In this document: piece by piece, positions 2,246 to 31,135 of the stretch
Layout: each line of letters begins with the position of its first letter
How positions within the stretch are numbered: the stretch's first letter is position 1
Made by a program: the position numbers and the translations under genes
From: Desulfobacterales bacterium
GTDB taxonomy: Bacteria; Desulfobacterota; Desulfobacteria; Desulfobacterales; UBA2156
Reading direction: 5' to 3'
Length of the DNA: 64,000 nucleotides
Assembly (NCBI GenBank): GCA_011049715.1
Contig: DRHF01000189.1
Span: 1 to 64,000 of the forward strand
Notes under the pieces: generated by a model
What the model saw: the letters and a program-made list of their open reading frames with translations, nothing else
The model's database searches: none
Told to the model about the DNA's origin: nothing

Positions 2246-2878
2246 TCAATTTGGTTCCGTTTTACCTTTGAGTATCACTTCGAGCTCTTTTAAGCTCTGA
2301 ATATGGTAATCTGCAGAAAGGTGCGGATTGTTATAGGCAATCAGAAATACCCCTGCCGCCCTTGACGCCATTTCATCCAATTCTGAATCACCGATGTAGA
2401 CCGCTTGAAAAGGCTCGATTTCAAAATGCGTTAGAATCTTCATCAGCAGGTCGGGATGGGGTTTGGGGTGCGCCACATCACGTGCACTTACAACCAGATC
2501 AAAATAGCCTTCGAGGTTGTGCTCGGCAAGGACGGAACCGATGGTGTCTGTCCGGTTGGTGGCAATGGCGGTTTTGTATTTGGATTTCAATTTCTTGAGC
2601 AATGGTTTTAAATCCGGTTCGATTTTCATTAACTTGATAAATGGGAAATAACCTATTTTTTTTCGATAGGCATGCGCGCTTTTGCATAGGCTTTCATCAT
2701 CAAACAGATACCTCAATGATGCATCGATTGTATGCATGTGGACATATGCAAACTGTTTGGATGTCAAATCCGGCATACCGAATTGATTCAGGATCTGATT
2801 ATAAAATGTCATATTCGCCTGTTTCGTATCGAATAAGACGCCGTCACAGTCAAAAGCAATGACCTGGATATCGTTCAT
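2246..2878 (-). CDS. HAD-superfamily hydrolase (phosphoglycolate phosphatase-like)
   Basis: FDCDGVLFDT motif I, AIATNRT motif II, HPKPHPD and YIGDSELDEMASRAAG motif IV. Confidence 0.85.
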   Translation of the reverse strand: MNDIQVIAFDCDGVLFDTKQANMTFYNQILNQFGMPDLTSKQFAYVHMHTIDASLRYLFDDESLCKSAHAYRKKIGYFPFIKLMKIEPDLKPLLKKLKSKYKTAIATNRTDTIGSVLAEHNLEGYFDLVVSARDVAHPKPHPDLLMKILTHFEIEPFQAVYIGDSELDEMASRAAGVFLIAYNNPHLSADYHIQSLKELEVILKGKTEPN

Positions 2879-2902: not shown

Positions 2903-3607
2903 TTATTTCGGTTCGGTGATATACCCATATATCTTGATTTTAATTTCCGGCTGTATCATGGTGTCTGTTTTCATGGTGATCGTCTCAAAATAACGACCTT
3001 TTACCTGTTTTAGATTTTTAACCGTTAAAAGATATTCATCACCGGTCTCTGCAACGACTCGCTCAATCGTGTAGCTGATATTTTTTCCCTGGCTTTCCTT
3101 TCGCTCAACGAGTTTGAACGGATATTTTTTTTCCGGGATAATCCGTACGTAGCCCTTTATTTCCTTTCCGGCCTCGCCGATTAGTTTTATCCGCTTGGGG
3201 CTTATGGTGGCGAATTTTTCAACCTTTCCAAAAATGTGGAGCCTGAAAGTCGGTTGCTTTTTATCATTGGTATGGATTACCGCTTTTTTTTGAAGTTTTC
3301 TTCCACCATAACCGGTCGTATCAACCTTTATGGTAATTGCACCCTCACCACCGGGAGGAATCTGCCTCGAATAGGAGACAGCTGTACATCCTCAGTCCGT
3401 ACGGATCTTCAAAATATCAAGCGTGAGTGTACCTTTGTTTTGTATGGCAAAGGTATGTTGAATTTGAACACCATCCAAAACCGGTGCAAACTCAAACTTT
3501 TTGATTGGTAAAAAGGCGGATGGTGATTTTTGGGCTCCGGAAACAACAGAAGCGGCGACAAACAGGCCGCAAATTAAAGCGAAGATAAAATAGCGCTTCA
3601 TTCTCAA
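2903..3607 (-). CDS. DUF1573-like exported protein, probable selenoprotein (in-frame TGA at 3394-3392)
   Basis: ORF 3392-3607 (signal peptide + LDILKIRTD) continues in the same frame after TGA as GCTAVSYSRQIPPGGEGAITIKVDTTGYGGRKLQKKAVIHTND...YGYITEPK* (162 aa). The TGA falls on the first Cys of the conserved CGCT motif of DUF1573. Confidence 0.75.
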
Positions 3608-3752
3608 AACCCCTTTTCAATTGTAGTTCCCATTTTAAATTTCAATATATTTCTATCAACCGGAGAAAACTCTGGCAAGTCATCTTTTTCTATCTTTATC
3701 TGTTGGATATGGGAAATTATTGGATTAAAGCACTTTTTCTTATTCAATAATT

Positions 3753-3885
3753 GATGAACTCGTAAAAAGACCATATTGCTCTCTAAATGACCATTTTGGG
3801 GCGTTTAGATCCGCCTGCGGCGGATCAAAACACTTTCTCCCAAAATGCTCAAAGTCGTTCGCAAATGACTTTTTACGAGTTCATC
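3753..3885. repeat. Palindromic repeat element (about 133 bp) with 17-bp perfect inverted ends
   Basis: GATGAACTCGTAAAAAG (3753-3769) versus CTTTTTACGAGTTCATC (3869-3885); nested CATTTTGGG/CCCAAAATG and GATCCGCC-TGC-GGCGGATC stems. Confidence 0.8.
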
Positions 3886-4820
3886 ATAATTGCCGATCCA
3901 ATGATTCTGTTATTCAACGTTTTTGCGACCGCCAGGGCCTTATTCAAACCTGGAACACCACTTCTACCGCCATATTCCCTGCAAGATAAAGAAGCCACAG
4001 CAACAGAGAATTTGACAATCTGGTGAAGGTCAAATCCTTTTTTCAGTGCCAGGGCAAAGGCCCCGTGGAAATTGTCACCAGCACCGACGGTATCAACGGC
4101 TTTCACTTCAGGGGCGGCCACGTGATAGAGTTTGTCGTTTGATATATAATAGGCACCGTTTTTACCGTGGGTAACGATCAGTTTGCCGCGAACCATGTTG
4201 TCCAATTCGATTATTTTTTGATTAAACGGCGCAAGGCGCAAATTTAGTGCCTTGGCTTCCAAAAATTCGGACGACGGAATAAAATAGTCGGCCGTGTCCA
4301 TGATATCTTCGATACCGTCCCGCCATCTTTCGCAATCATAAACCAGTTTGATTTTGCCGCCTGTTTCGTTTTTTAATGGCCGGCAGAGATGGGTGACCTC
4401 CGGATCAAGCAAAGCAATATCCGATTGCAGAGCCAATTTTTTAACCGGACCGTCGATGGTAATTTTTGGCAATGTACTGGGTTCGTAAATGATGGTCCGA
4501 TTCCCCCCGGCTACGGTGACGAAAACGTATGAAACCGGCGTTTTTCCTCCTGCCACAATTTCAATAAACTCCGTTGTCACCCCACAAGCTTTTAAACGGT
4601 CCAGGCAAAATCTTCCTTCTTTGTCGTCACCGAGCTTTCCCACATAAGCAACCCTGCCGCCCAACCGGGAAATACAACAGGAAGAAGTCCCCCCCTGACC
4701 CCCCCCTTCGGTTAACCGAAACTCCAACGGCTGTTTTTGGTTTTCATCCGGAAATTGATTTACAACGGCAATATAATCGAGGCAGCTGCGCCCGATGACC
4801 AGCACATCAATGGTGTTCAT
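3873..4820 (-). CDS. PfkB/ribokinase-family carbohydrate kinase
   Basis: GGGQGGTSSCCISRLGG and DTVGAGDNFHGAFALAL signatures. Confidence 0.85.
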   Translation of the reverse strand: MNTIDVLVIGRSCLDYIAVVNQFPDENQKQPLEFRLTEGGGQGGTSSCCISRLGGRVAYVGKLGDDKEGRFCLDRLKACGVTTEFIEIVAGGKTPVSYVFVTVAGGNRTIIYEPSTLPKITIDGPVKKLALQSDIALLDPEVTHLCRPLKNETGGKIKLVYDCERWRDGIEDIMDTADYFIPSSEFLEAKALNLRLAPFNQKIIELDNMVRGKLIVTHGKNGAYYISNDKLYHVAAPEVKAVDTVGAGDNFHGAFALALKKGFDLHQIVKFSVAVASLSCREYGGRSGVPGLNKALAVAKTLNNRIIGSAIMMNS

Positions 4821-5326
4821 TTTTTATTTTGTTTAGATATCATGAATATCGCTCAGATCTTCTGATATGATGACCTTGCCCTGCCCAAGGGACGCTGTTT
4901 CTTTGTTCTTCGGTTTTCTCGAAATTCCAATTTTCTTTAGGCGTGGGCGACTGTGATGGATGCCTCTTGTATTTGAGAACTTGGATATTGACTATAGGTT
5001 TTGCACCTTTGATTTTACGATGACCCGCATCCGTCAGGGGCAAACTGAAATTAACATATGTGGTAGCCAAAGGCAAGATGGGGAAAACATTGTGCTCGTC
5101 CAAAAGCCGCTTAGCGCCTAAAGGAAAACAGGAGAAATGAGGTGCAATTCTCCTATCCTCATACCATGTAATTTTATTTTCAACTGTTTATCAAAGATGG
5201 CCATGGTATTTTTCATAGAATGAAACTTTATTTCATTATAATTCTTGACAGGATGGATCGGTTTGGATATTTGAAAAAGAGATCGAACATTACAAACTTT
5301 TCAATAGAATAGCGAGGGAGGCAGCA

Positions 5327-11215: not shown

Positions 11216-12670
11216 ATGGAAAAAGGAACATTAGGAGGGTTGAACGGCGGGATCTATCGCCCCTTCACCGATGTGGACCTGCGTAAGGTTGATGGGGCAA
11301 TTACCCGGCTTTTGTCCGAAGTTGGGATCAAGGTAGCGAATAAACGCGCCTTTGAGCTGTTCAAGGCCAAGGGCATTGAGACGGACGAAGAAAAGAAACT
11401 GGTGTATATCCCCAGAGGATTGCTGGAAGATTGTATCGCTTCAACACCTTCGGAGCTTATTTTATACGGCCGTGGCAATCCAGATTACAACATCCATGTG
11501 GGGGGCACTCGCGTTCATTTTGGCAGCGGTGGAACAGCGTTGAACATTATAGATCTGGAAACAGGACAAAAACGTCCCTCCACACTCAAAGATGTTCAGA
11601 ATGTCTCCAAACTGATGGACTATCTGGACAACGCCCATTTTCAAGTTATCCCTGTTTTCCCAAACGATCTGCCGATTGAGAAGGTGGACATCAATCGTTT
11701 TTTTGCGGCTATAAACAACACGAACAAGCACGTCCAGGGCGGTATCTACACGGCTTCAGGAACCAAGGAAGTAGTGGAGATGTGTTCCATGATTGCGGGT
11801 GGTCTGGAGGCGCTGCAGAAGGAACCCTGGGTTTCGTTTATCACCTGCATGATCAGCCCTCTGGAAATCGATCAAACCTACGGCGATTTAATGATGATCT
11901 GCGCTGAATCGGGACTCCCGTTGTCCATTCCCGCCGAGCCGCTCACAGGGGCCACCGGTCCTATTACGGTTGCGGGAAATGTGGCCAACGTTTGCGCTGA
12001 GTCATTGGCGGGCCTCTGTTTGGCCCAAATCGTCAATAAGGGAACGCCTGTATTGATGGCCTGCACATCCGCGTCCACGGATCTGCGAACCATGGGATAT
12101 GTGTCCGGCTCTGTGGAGGAAGGGCTTATCAATGCTTGCGCCGCACAAATGGCACAGTATTACGAGCTTCCTTTTTACGGAACCGCAGGACAATCTGATT
12201 CCAAGATTCTGGATGCACAGGCCGGTTACGAAGGTGCGATCACCAACCTGCTCGTGGGCATGGCCGGGGGCAATTTCATTCATGACGCATTGGGACTTCT
12301 GGAATTTTGCCTAACAGCTTCATATGAAAAGTACGTCATGGACAATGAAATTCTGGGTGAAGTGATGCGTGTTTTGAAAGGGGTGACGGTAACAGAGGAG
12401 ACACTGGCAGTGGATGTCACGGCTGAAGTGGGTCCCGGAGGAAACTTTCTTCAGGAAGATCACACATTTGATCACATGCGCGAGGAACATTTTGTGCCCA
12501 AGATTGCAGACCGGAAGCCGAGGGAAAAATGGGAGGCGACAGGGAAAAAAGATACGTTTACCCGTTGTCATGAGATCGTGCTTGAAGTCCTTGAAACCCA
12601 TAAAGCCGAGCCGGTGGATGAAGAGGTTGTGAAAGCCATCCGGACCAAATTCAAGAATTTTGTGCAATAG
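11216..12670 (+). CDS. MttB-family (trimethylamine/betaine) methyltransferase, no in-frame amber codon
   Basis: 484 aa MttB-type protein: VHFGSGGTALNIIDLETGQKRPSTLKDV, EPLTGATGPITVAGNVANVCAE, DSKILDAQAGYEGA; followed by a corrinoid protein gene. Confidence 0.9.
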   Translation: MEKGTLGGLNGGIYRPFTDVDLRKVDGAITRLLSEVGIKVANKRAFELFKAKGIETDEEKKLVYIPRGLLEDCIASTPSELILYGRGNPDYNIHVGGTRVHFGSGGTALNIIDLETGQKRPSTLKDVQNVSKLMDYLDNAHFQVIPVFPNDLPIEKVDINRFFAAINNTNKHVQGGIYTASGTKEVVEMCSMIAGGLEALQKEPWVSFITCMISPLEIDQTYGDLMMICAESGLPLSIPAEPLTGATGPITVAGNVANVCAESLAGLCLAQIVNKGTPVLMACTSASTDLRTMGYVSGSVEEGLINACAAQMAQYYELPFYGTAGQSDSKILDAQAGYEGAITNLLVGMAGGNFIHDALGLLEFCLTASYEKYVMDNEILGEVMRVLKGVTVTEETLAVDVTAEVGPGGNFLQEDHTFDHMREEHFVPKIADRKPREKWEATGKKDTFTRCHEIVLEVLETHKAEPVDEEVVKAIRTKFKNFVQ

Positions 12671-29713: not shown

Positions 29714-31135
29714 TCAGGTCCTTTTTAACAGGTTCTCGAAAGCGGTTCCGATAATCACAAGCTCATCATCTTGTATGGTTCTGGGGTCCAGAATGAAGCA
29801 ATCTTCTTCTATCCTGCCGATGATAGGGGTTGAATTTTTTCTCATGAACTTTTCGATGGCATTGGCGGATATCTCTTTAATTTTTATTGCAACACATTTG
29901 GTCGGTAATTCCAAAAGGGGAAGCGCCCCGCCCCCGACGCGAGAGGAGAGGTCGACAAGTTGAATAGATAGACGAGGGTCTTTCAGATCTTCCAACAGAT
30001 GGCAAAGCCGAACGGCTTTCATTTCAATGGCCTTAAACGACATGGTCAGCATTTTCAGCGTGGGAATCGTTTCAATCGCCCTGTTTTCATCCCGGTATGC
30101 TGAAACGGTGCTCTCAAGAGCAGCGAGTGTGAGTTTGTCAATTCGAAGGGCTCTTGTCAGCGGGTTTTTTTTGATTGTGTGAAGCATGTCCTTTTTCCCC
30201 AGAATAATTCCAGCCTGCGGGCCCCCCAACAGCTTGTCACCGCTGAAAGTGACAACATCGACCCCTGTGGCCACAGATTCCTGAATCGTCGGTTCCTTTA
30301 TCATCCCGTATTTTGAAAAATCGATGAAGGTTCCGCTTCCCAAATCTTCCATAACAGGAATATGATGGGTCTTGCCGAGTGCAACCAGTTCTTTGAGAGT
30401 GACGGCCGCAGAAAATCCAACAACGCTGTAATTGCTGGTATGGACCTTTAAAAGGAGCCCTGTGTTGTCTTCAATTGCGTTTTTATAATCTTTCAGGTGG
30501 GTCCGGTTGGTCGTACCGACCTCCTTCAAAATGCCGCCACTTTTTGCCATGATATCCGGAATCCTGAATGAACCGCCGATTTCGATCAACTCTCCCCTTG
30601 ATACGATCACTTTTTTCCCTTTTGCAATGGTGTCCAAACACAGCAGAACAGCGCCGGCATTATTGTTTACCGCCATGGCTGCTTCTGCCCCACTGATCTC
30701 ACAGAGAATCTCTTCGATGCAGCTATATCTGGAACCCCGCATACCTTTTGTCAGGTCGAACTCCAGATTGGAATATTTTTTGGCTATGGTTAAAAGGTTT
30801 TCAACGGCATCAGGTGATAGGGGTGACCGTCCCAGGTTGGTATGTATCACAACACCGGTAGCATTTATCGTTGTTACCAGATTCGGATGGATGGCATGTT
30901 CGGCCCTCTCTCTGACTTTTTGAATGATTGTTTCGTCCGAGAGGTTTTTTCCCGCTGTATTTTGCGAATCATCGAGAATGCTTTTCCTCAGTTCCGCAAC
31001 CACCAGGCGGATGGAGCGGGTTACCACCGAATTGGGCACGGTCTTGAAAAAAGGATCAGCCTGGGTCAGTTCAAGGAGGTAGTCAACCCCCGGGAGGGTT
31101 CGCAAAAGTTTTTGTTGATCTTCATTTACACCCAT
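29714..31135 (-). CDS. selA: L-seryl-tRNA(Sec) selenium transferase
   Basis: LLRTLPGVDYLLE, TINATGVVIHTNLGRSPL, NNNAGAVLL, VVTFSGDKLLGGPQAGIILGKK; ORF extends to 31222 but MGVNEDQQ is the likely start. Confidence 0.95.
   Translation of the reverse strand: MGVNEDQQKLLRTLPGVDYLLELTQADPFFKTVPNSVVTRSIRLVVAELRKSILDDSQNTAGKNLSDETIIQKVRERAEHAIHPNLVTTINATGVVIHTNLGRSPLSPDAVENLLTIAKKYSNLEFDLTKGMRGSRYSCIEEILCEISGAEAAMAVNNNAGAVLLCLDTIAKGKKVIVSRGELIEIGGSFRIPDIMAKSGGILKEVGTTNRTHLKDYKNAIEDNTGLLLKVHTSNYSVVGFSAAVTLKELVALGKTHHIPVMEDLGSGTFIDFSKYGMIKEPTIQESVATGVDVVTFSGDKLLGGPQAGIILGKKDMLHTIKKNPLTRALRIDKLTLAALESTVSAYRDENRAIETIPTLKMLTMSFKAIEMKAVRLCHLLEDLKDPRLSIQLVDLSSRVGGGALPLLELPTKCVAIKIKEISANAIEKFMRKNSTPIIGRIEEDCFILDPRTIQDDELVIIGTAFENLLKRT

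What the first reader, a model, noticed from the sequence alone, without database searches (positions are those of the whole stretch)
2903..3607. Probable selenocysteine-containing DUF1573 protein (U-G-C-T in place of C-G-C-T)
Seen: the minus-strand ORF stops at TGA (3394-3392) after ...LDILKIRTD. The same frame then stays open for 162 codons to TAA at 2905-2903, reading GCTAVSYSRQIPPGGEGAITIKVDTTGYGG.... Established: DUF1573 proteins carry a conserved [S/T]CGCT motif at this point, so the TGA replaces exactly the first Cys of the Cys-Gly-Cys pair. The coding frame and family continue on both sides. A naive gene caller would split this into a 71-aa stub. I do not recall DUF1573 as a textbook selenoprotein family, but I cannot verify novelty here.
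Basis: partly seen in the sequence, partly recalled or inferred. Interest (0 to 1): 0.88.

Follow-up and report, generated by a model that had tools for sequence, protein, structure and literature searches.

The report
Known selenoprotein family, DUF1573/OS_HP2 member
This gene from a bacterium of the order Desulfobacterales reads a 'stop' codon as the rare amino acid selenocysteine; the call is right, but the protein belongs to a selenoprotein family (OS_HP2/DUF1573) reported since 2007-2008, so it is a new member and not a discovery.

Summary
On the minus strand a DUF1573 reading frame (window 3607/3601 to 2903) is interrupted once, by TGA at 3394-3392, exactly at an invariant Cys column. 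The selenocysteine (Sec) reading is strongly supported. In 45 distinct Desulfobacterales loci (39-91% identity) this column is TGA in 35 and Cys in 10, with no other stop nearby. A bacterial SECIS-type stem-loop follows the TGA in Sec forms, is more stable than synonymous recodings, shows compensatory changes, and is gone in Cys forms. Both sides of the TGA are under purifying selection. selA lies in this window and selB elsewhere in the genome; selC was not found in this 461-contig assembly but is present in the same-genus relative and the four other family genomes. The family is already catalogued: NCBIfam NF041425 'OS_HP2 family (seleno)protein' (142 bits, cut-off 100), the 2008 GOS selenoproteome (OS_HP2, pfam07610, UxC), and two reviews (DUF1573, UGC) citing the 2007 Olavius symbiont paper. 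What I add: the Sec form predominates among the best hits across Desulfobacterales, a HAD-phosphatase gene usually follows, and the predicted fold is two Ig-like domains. Biochemical function remains unknown; an exported, non-thioredoxin redox or metal site is the best guess. Low interest.

The parts
2903..3601 (-). OS_HP2/DUF1573 selenoprotein gene, ATG 3601 (TTG 3607 alternative) to TAA 2905-2903; signal-peptide-like N-terminus plus two predicted Ig-like domains
   Evidence: Pfam PF07610 E=1.7e-16; NCBIfam NF041425 142.3 bits vs cut-off 100; AF2 model pLDDT 88
3392..3394 (-). in-frame TGA read as selenocysteine (U of the U-G-C-T motif)
   Evidence: TGA in 35, Cys in 10 of 45 distinct homologous loci at this column
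3355..3393 (-). bacterial SECIS-type stem-loop: lower stem of 5 pairs (3393-3389 with 3359-3355), upper stem of 7 pairs (3381-3375 with 3368-3362), six-base loop
   Evidence: MFE -14.7 kcal/mol against mean -8.5 for synonymous recodings, z about -2.0, 3.8% of recodings as low; covariation in 32 Sec homologs; lost in Cys homologs
2246..2878 (-). HAD-family phosphatase gene just downstream, conserved neighbour
   Evidence: Pfam HAD_2 E=4.6e-33; relative of this ORF found in 25 of 31 loci compared, usually directly after the DUF1573 gene
29744..31105 (-). selA, L-seryl-tRNA(Sec) selenium transferase (trans-acting machinery in the same contig; extent of the profile match)
   Evidence: TIGR00474 608.6 bits over cut-off; Pfam SelA E=5.9e-159

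Best explanation
The gene encodes an exported selenoprotein of the known OS_HP2/DUF1573 family. The UGA at 3394-3392 is decoded as selenocysteine by SelB and Sec-tRNA(Sec), directed by the stem-loop directly 3' of the UGA inside the coding region (strongly supported by computation; incorporation itself not shown). The product has an N-terminal signal-like segment and two Ig-like beta-sandwich domains (predicted). Sec-Gly-Cys-Thr lies in a short turn between two strands of the first domain (predicted). Most likely the Sec/Cys pair is a reactive selenol-thiol site in the cell envelope, used in redox chemistry or in binding a soft metal or sulfur/selenium species (inferred; no function is known to me for any family member). 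The confidence given is for the Sec and family assignment; for the envelope redox or metal role it is about 0.4.
For: Family: NF041425 above its cut-off, DUF1573. Sec/Cys interchange at one invariant column. Of the 150 best places printed, 140 carry one in-frame TGA (one with an extra TAA) and 10 none. Hairpin: Sec forms mean MFE -14.3 and mean z -1.48 against synonymous recodings (n=35); Cys forms about -8 and z +0.3 (TGC, n=6) and 0.0 (TGT, n=4). Covariation: 5 of 12 pairs with two-sided change, 15 cells, 0/500 shuffles reach either; 86.7% paired against 38-56% when slid. Same-genus relative: dN 0.026, dS 0.185 before and dN 0.044, dS 0.237 after the TGA, with a two-sided change (A-U to G-C) in the lower stem. 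Machinery: SelA, SelB 389 bits, tRNA-Sec with anticodon TCA in relatives. Fold; Foldseek hits to ciliary HYDIN/central-apparatus Ig-like domains.
Against: No selC was found in this genome assembly, though it has 461 contigs and is 94.8% complete; selD was not searched. The window sequence's own hairpin is only modestly exceptional (z about -2). No expression or selenium data. The redox/metal role is inference.
Confidence: 0.95

Rival explanations
1. The TGA is a true stop in a decaying pseudogene, or a nonsense mutation leaving a short stub.
For: The table-11 ORF is a 71-aa stub; selC not found in the assembly.
Against: TGA at the same column in 35 distinct loci down to 39% identity; purifying selection after the TGA; no other stops or frameshifts.
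Confidence: 0.02
2. Sequencing or assembly error turning TGC/TGT into TGA.
For: The window comes from a fragmented assembly (461 contigs).
Against: The same TGA in independently assembled genomes, including single-contig or near-closed ones (G118, G186, G054), with a SECIS-type hairpin present only in TGA forms.
Confidence: 0.01
3. TGA is read as something else (general UGA=Trp code, near-cognate suppression) and not as Sec.
For: No direct chemical evidence for Sec.
Against: Replacement partner is always Cys, never Trp; the selA frame in this window closes at TGA 29716 with another frame's ATG just after, so TGA also serves as a stop; SelA and SelB present.
Confidence: 0.02

Closest known systems
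OS_HP2 family (seleno)protein, NCBIfam NF041425; = DUF1573 'UGC' selenoprotein of the Olavius algarvensis delta-1 symbiont (Zhang & Gladyshev 2007, cited in PMC9312934 and PMC13188914); GOS OS_HP2, pfam07610, UxC (PMC2398784)
   Same: Same domain, same U-G-C motif, score above the family cut-off, same broad bacterial group (Desulfobacterales, formerly Deltaproteobacteria).
   Different: Nothing that defines a new class; this is another family member. The breadth in Desulfobacterales, the covarying SECIS and the HAD neighbour were not described in the passages I read.
Cys-containing DUF1573 proteins (e.g. Desulfamplus magnetovallimortis; Bacteroidota such as Prevotella and Bacteroides)
   Same: Same domain and C-G-C-T motif.
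   Different: Cys codon in place of TGA; the Desulfobacterales Cys forms mostly lack the SECIS hairpin.
HYDIN-type (ASH) Ig-like domains of ciliary proteins
   Same: Fold: PF22544 match and Foldseek hits.
   Different: No U/C-G-C-T site known to me there; unrelated biology, resemblance of fold only.

Membership tests
OS_HP2 selenoprotein (NF041425) | score above the curated NCBIfam cut-off (100 bits) | tested here: met
   142.3 bits, profile 2-98 of 98
OS_HP2 selenoprotein (NF041425) | U/C-G-C motif with Sec or Cys at the first position | tested here: met
   U72-G73-C74; Sec/Cys column invariant in 45 distinct loci
DUF1573 (PF07610) | match above the Pfam gathering score | tested here: met
   60.5 bits vs 26.1
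Bacterial SECIS-dependent selenoprotein | conserved stem-loop immediately 3' of UGA | tested here: met
   (computation only; bSECISearch itself not run)
Bacterial SECIS-dependent selenoprotein | organism encodes SelA and SelB | tested here: met
Bacterial SECIS-dependent selenoprotein | organism encodes tRNA-Sec (selC) | tested here: inconclusive
   not found in the 461-contig assembly; found in the same-genus genome G005 and the four other family genomes
Bacterial SECIS-dependent selenoprotein | organism encodes SelD | not tested
   not searched
Bacterial SECIS-dependent selenoprotein | selenium in the protein (75Se or MS) | not testable with these tools
   needs experiment

The most novel reading that the evidence does not exclude
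OS_HP2 is a widespread core envelope selenoprotein of Desulfobacterales in which a Sec-Gly-Cys pair on an Ig-like (non-thioredoxin) domain forms a selenenylsulfide redox or metal/selenium-binding site, functionally tied to the downstream HAD phosphatase gene.
Probability: 0.3. Interest if true: 0.45.

Novelty: new member of a known kind. Interest (0 to 1): 0.2.

Why it matters
Standard gene callers truncate this protein, so a gene with a relative in 341 of 390 Desulfobacterales genomes sampled, mostly in the Sec form among the best hits, is probably mis-annotated as a short stub in many of them. The close Sec/Cys pairs (e.g. L069 against L050/L052) are good material for testing what Sec adds in a protein that is not a thioredoxin-fold enzyme. 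The existence of the family itself is not news.

Tried and rejected
Novel selenoprotein family: rejected, already catalogued. Pseudogene, sequencing error and UGA=Trp: rejected. selC in this assembly by Rfam and by the same-genus tRNA-Sec sequence: nothing found (the second search carries no positive control in this genome). Solved-structure sequence search: no match. A second DUF1573 protein with an in-frame TGA in the same genome (C376) was checked as a possible variant: its TGA aligns with the motif's Gly column, its hairpin is not exceptional (z -0.18), and no ortholog was found, so it is left open. A genome-contig scan with a Cys-based pattern returned only Cys forms, because such patterns cannot match TGA. 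The 2007 Zhang & Gladyshev paper itself is not held; it is cited through the reviews.

Full report
What is there. On the minus strand the frame starting at TTG 3607 (more plausibly ATG 3601) stops at TGA 3394-3392 and stays open for 162 further codons to TAA 2905-2903. Read through, it is a 234-residue protein whose DUF1573 domain spans the TGA.

Is the TGA meaningful? In the order-wide search 341 of 390 genomes had a relative at E <= 1e-6; of the 150 best places printed, 140 carry one in-frame TGA (one of them with an extra TAA) and 10 have none (my count of the printed list). I located the column precisely in 45 distinct loci: TGA in 35, TGC in 6, TGT in 4, and no other stop from 50 codons before to 130 codons after it. 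The residue is invariant as Sec or Cys, and so are the following Gly and the second Cys. All six genomes of the family have TGA there. Against the same-genus relative (91% identity) dN/dS is about 0.14 before and 0.19 after the TGA. This excludes a pseudogene and a sequencing error.

Is there a SECIS? Directly after the TGA the RNA can form a lower stem and an upper stem with a six-base loop. In 35 Sec forms the mean folding energy is -14.3 kcal/mol and the mean z against synonymous recodings -1.48; in 10 Cys forms it is about -8 kcal/mol and z about 0 to +0.3. For the window gene alone z is about -2.0, with 3.8% of recodings as stable, so the single-sequence case is modest and the comparison carries the weight. 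On 32 aligned Sec sequences, 5 of 12 pairs show two-sided changes and 0 of 500 shuffles reach that; sliding the partner lowers pairing from 87% to 38-56%. These sequences are related, so the shuffle count is not a probability. The genus pair itself shows an A-U to G-C change in the lower stem.

Is the machinery there? selA is in this window (29744-31105; Pfam SelA) and selB is in contig 16 with 389 bits. tRNA-Sec was not found in this assembly but is found with anticodon TCA in the same-genus genome and in the four other genomes of the family. I attribute the gap to assembly incompleteness; this is inference. The order is named Desulfobacterales from the titles of records that match genomes of the same order.

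What does it do? AlphaFold2 gives a confident model (mean pLDDT 88) of two beta domains after a signal-like N-terminus, with Sec-Gly-Cys in the turn between strands 61-68 and 72-77 (numbering from ATG; Sec modelled as Cys). Foldseek finds HYDIN-type Ig-like domains of ciliary proteins, a 2007 structure of unknown function from Porphyromonas gingivalis (2qsv) and other Ig-like proteins. TM-scores over the whole chain are low, as expected if the domain arrangement differs; this supports the fold, not a function. A HAD-family phosphatase gene is near this gene in 25 of 31 loci compared, and priA-like genes in 16 (the priA name is by eye from the sequence). No experimental function is known to me. 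An exported selenol/thiol site for redox or soft-metal chemistry is the most economical guess and is unproven.

Is it known? Yes. NCBIfam NF041425 'OS_HP2 family (seleno)protein' matches above its cut-off. The 2008 Global Ocean Sampling selenoproteome lists OS_HP2, pfam07610, motif UxC (PMC2398784). Reviews of 2022 and 2026 list DUF1573, motif UGC, citing the 2007 Olavius algarvensis work (PMC9312934, PMC13188914). The modest additions here are the breadth in Desulfobacterales, the SECIS covariation with its loss in Cys forms, and the HAD neighbour. I did not find these in the passages read, but I did not search exhaustively for prior reports of them.

Noticed in passing
same genome, contig C376:23094-24035 minus (L010:1009-1950, L125): A second, longer DUF1573 protein (about 310 aa) with an in-frame TGA in '...EGC-TGA-SPEV...'; the TGA aligns next to the conserved Cys column, giving a Cys-Sec neighbour pair if real. 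No ortholog found in the order or phylum samples; hairpin not exceptional; the contig could be a contaminant (assembly contamination 5.35%). Unexplained.
   Followed up: partly
window 3755-3885: A palindromic repeat of about 131 bp between the pfkB-family gene and the selenoprotein gene; 66 full or partial matches in the genome (some double-counted, since the palindrome matches both strands), with related pieces in the same-genus relative: MITE-like or REP-like element.
   Followed up: partly
window 3708-5050 against L061: The pfkB-family kinase region is absent at the orthologous place in the same-genus genome G005, where the two flanks adjoin directly: an insertion here or a deletion there.
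   Followed up: no
window 11216-12670: MttB-like (trimethylamine/glycine betaine methyltransferase family) ORF by eye; open without an internal TAG, so apparently a non-pyrrolysine form. Family not tested with a profile.
   Followed up: no
loci L050, L052, L054, L055 against L069: Close Sec and Cys forms of the same protein within one genus (g85), some genomes carrying both; the Cys copies keep only remnants of the hairpin or none, which suggests recent Sec/Cys exchange.
   Followed up: partly
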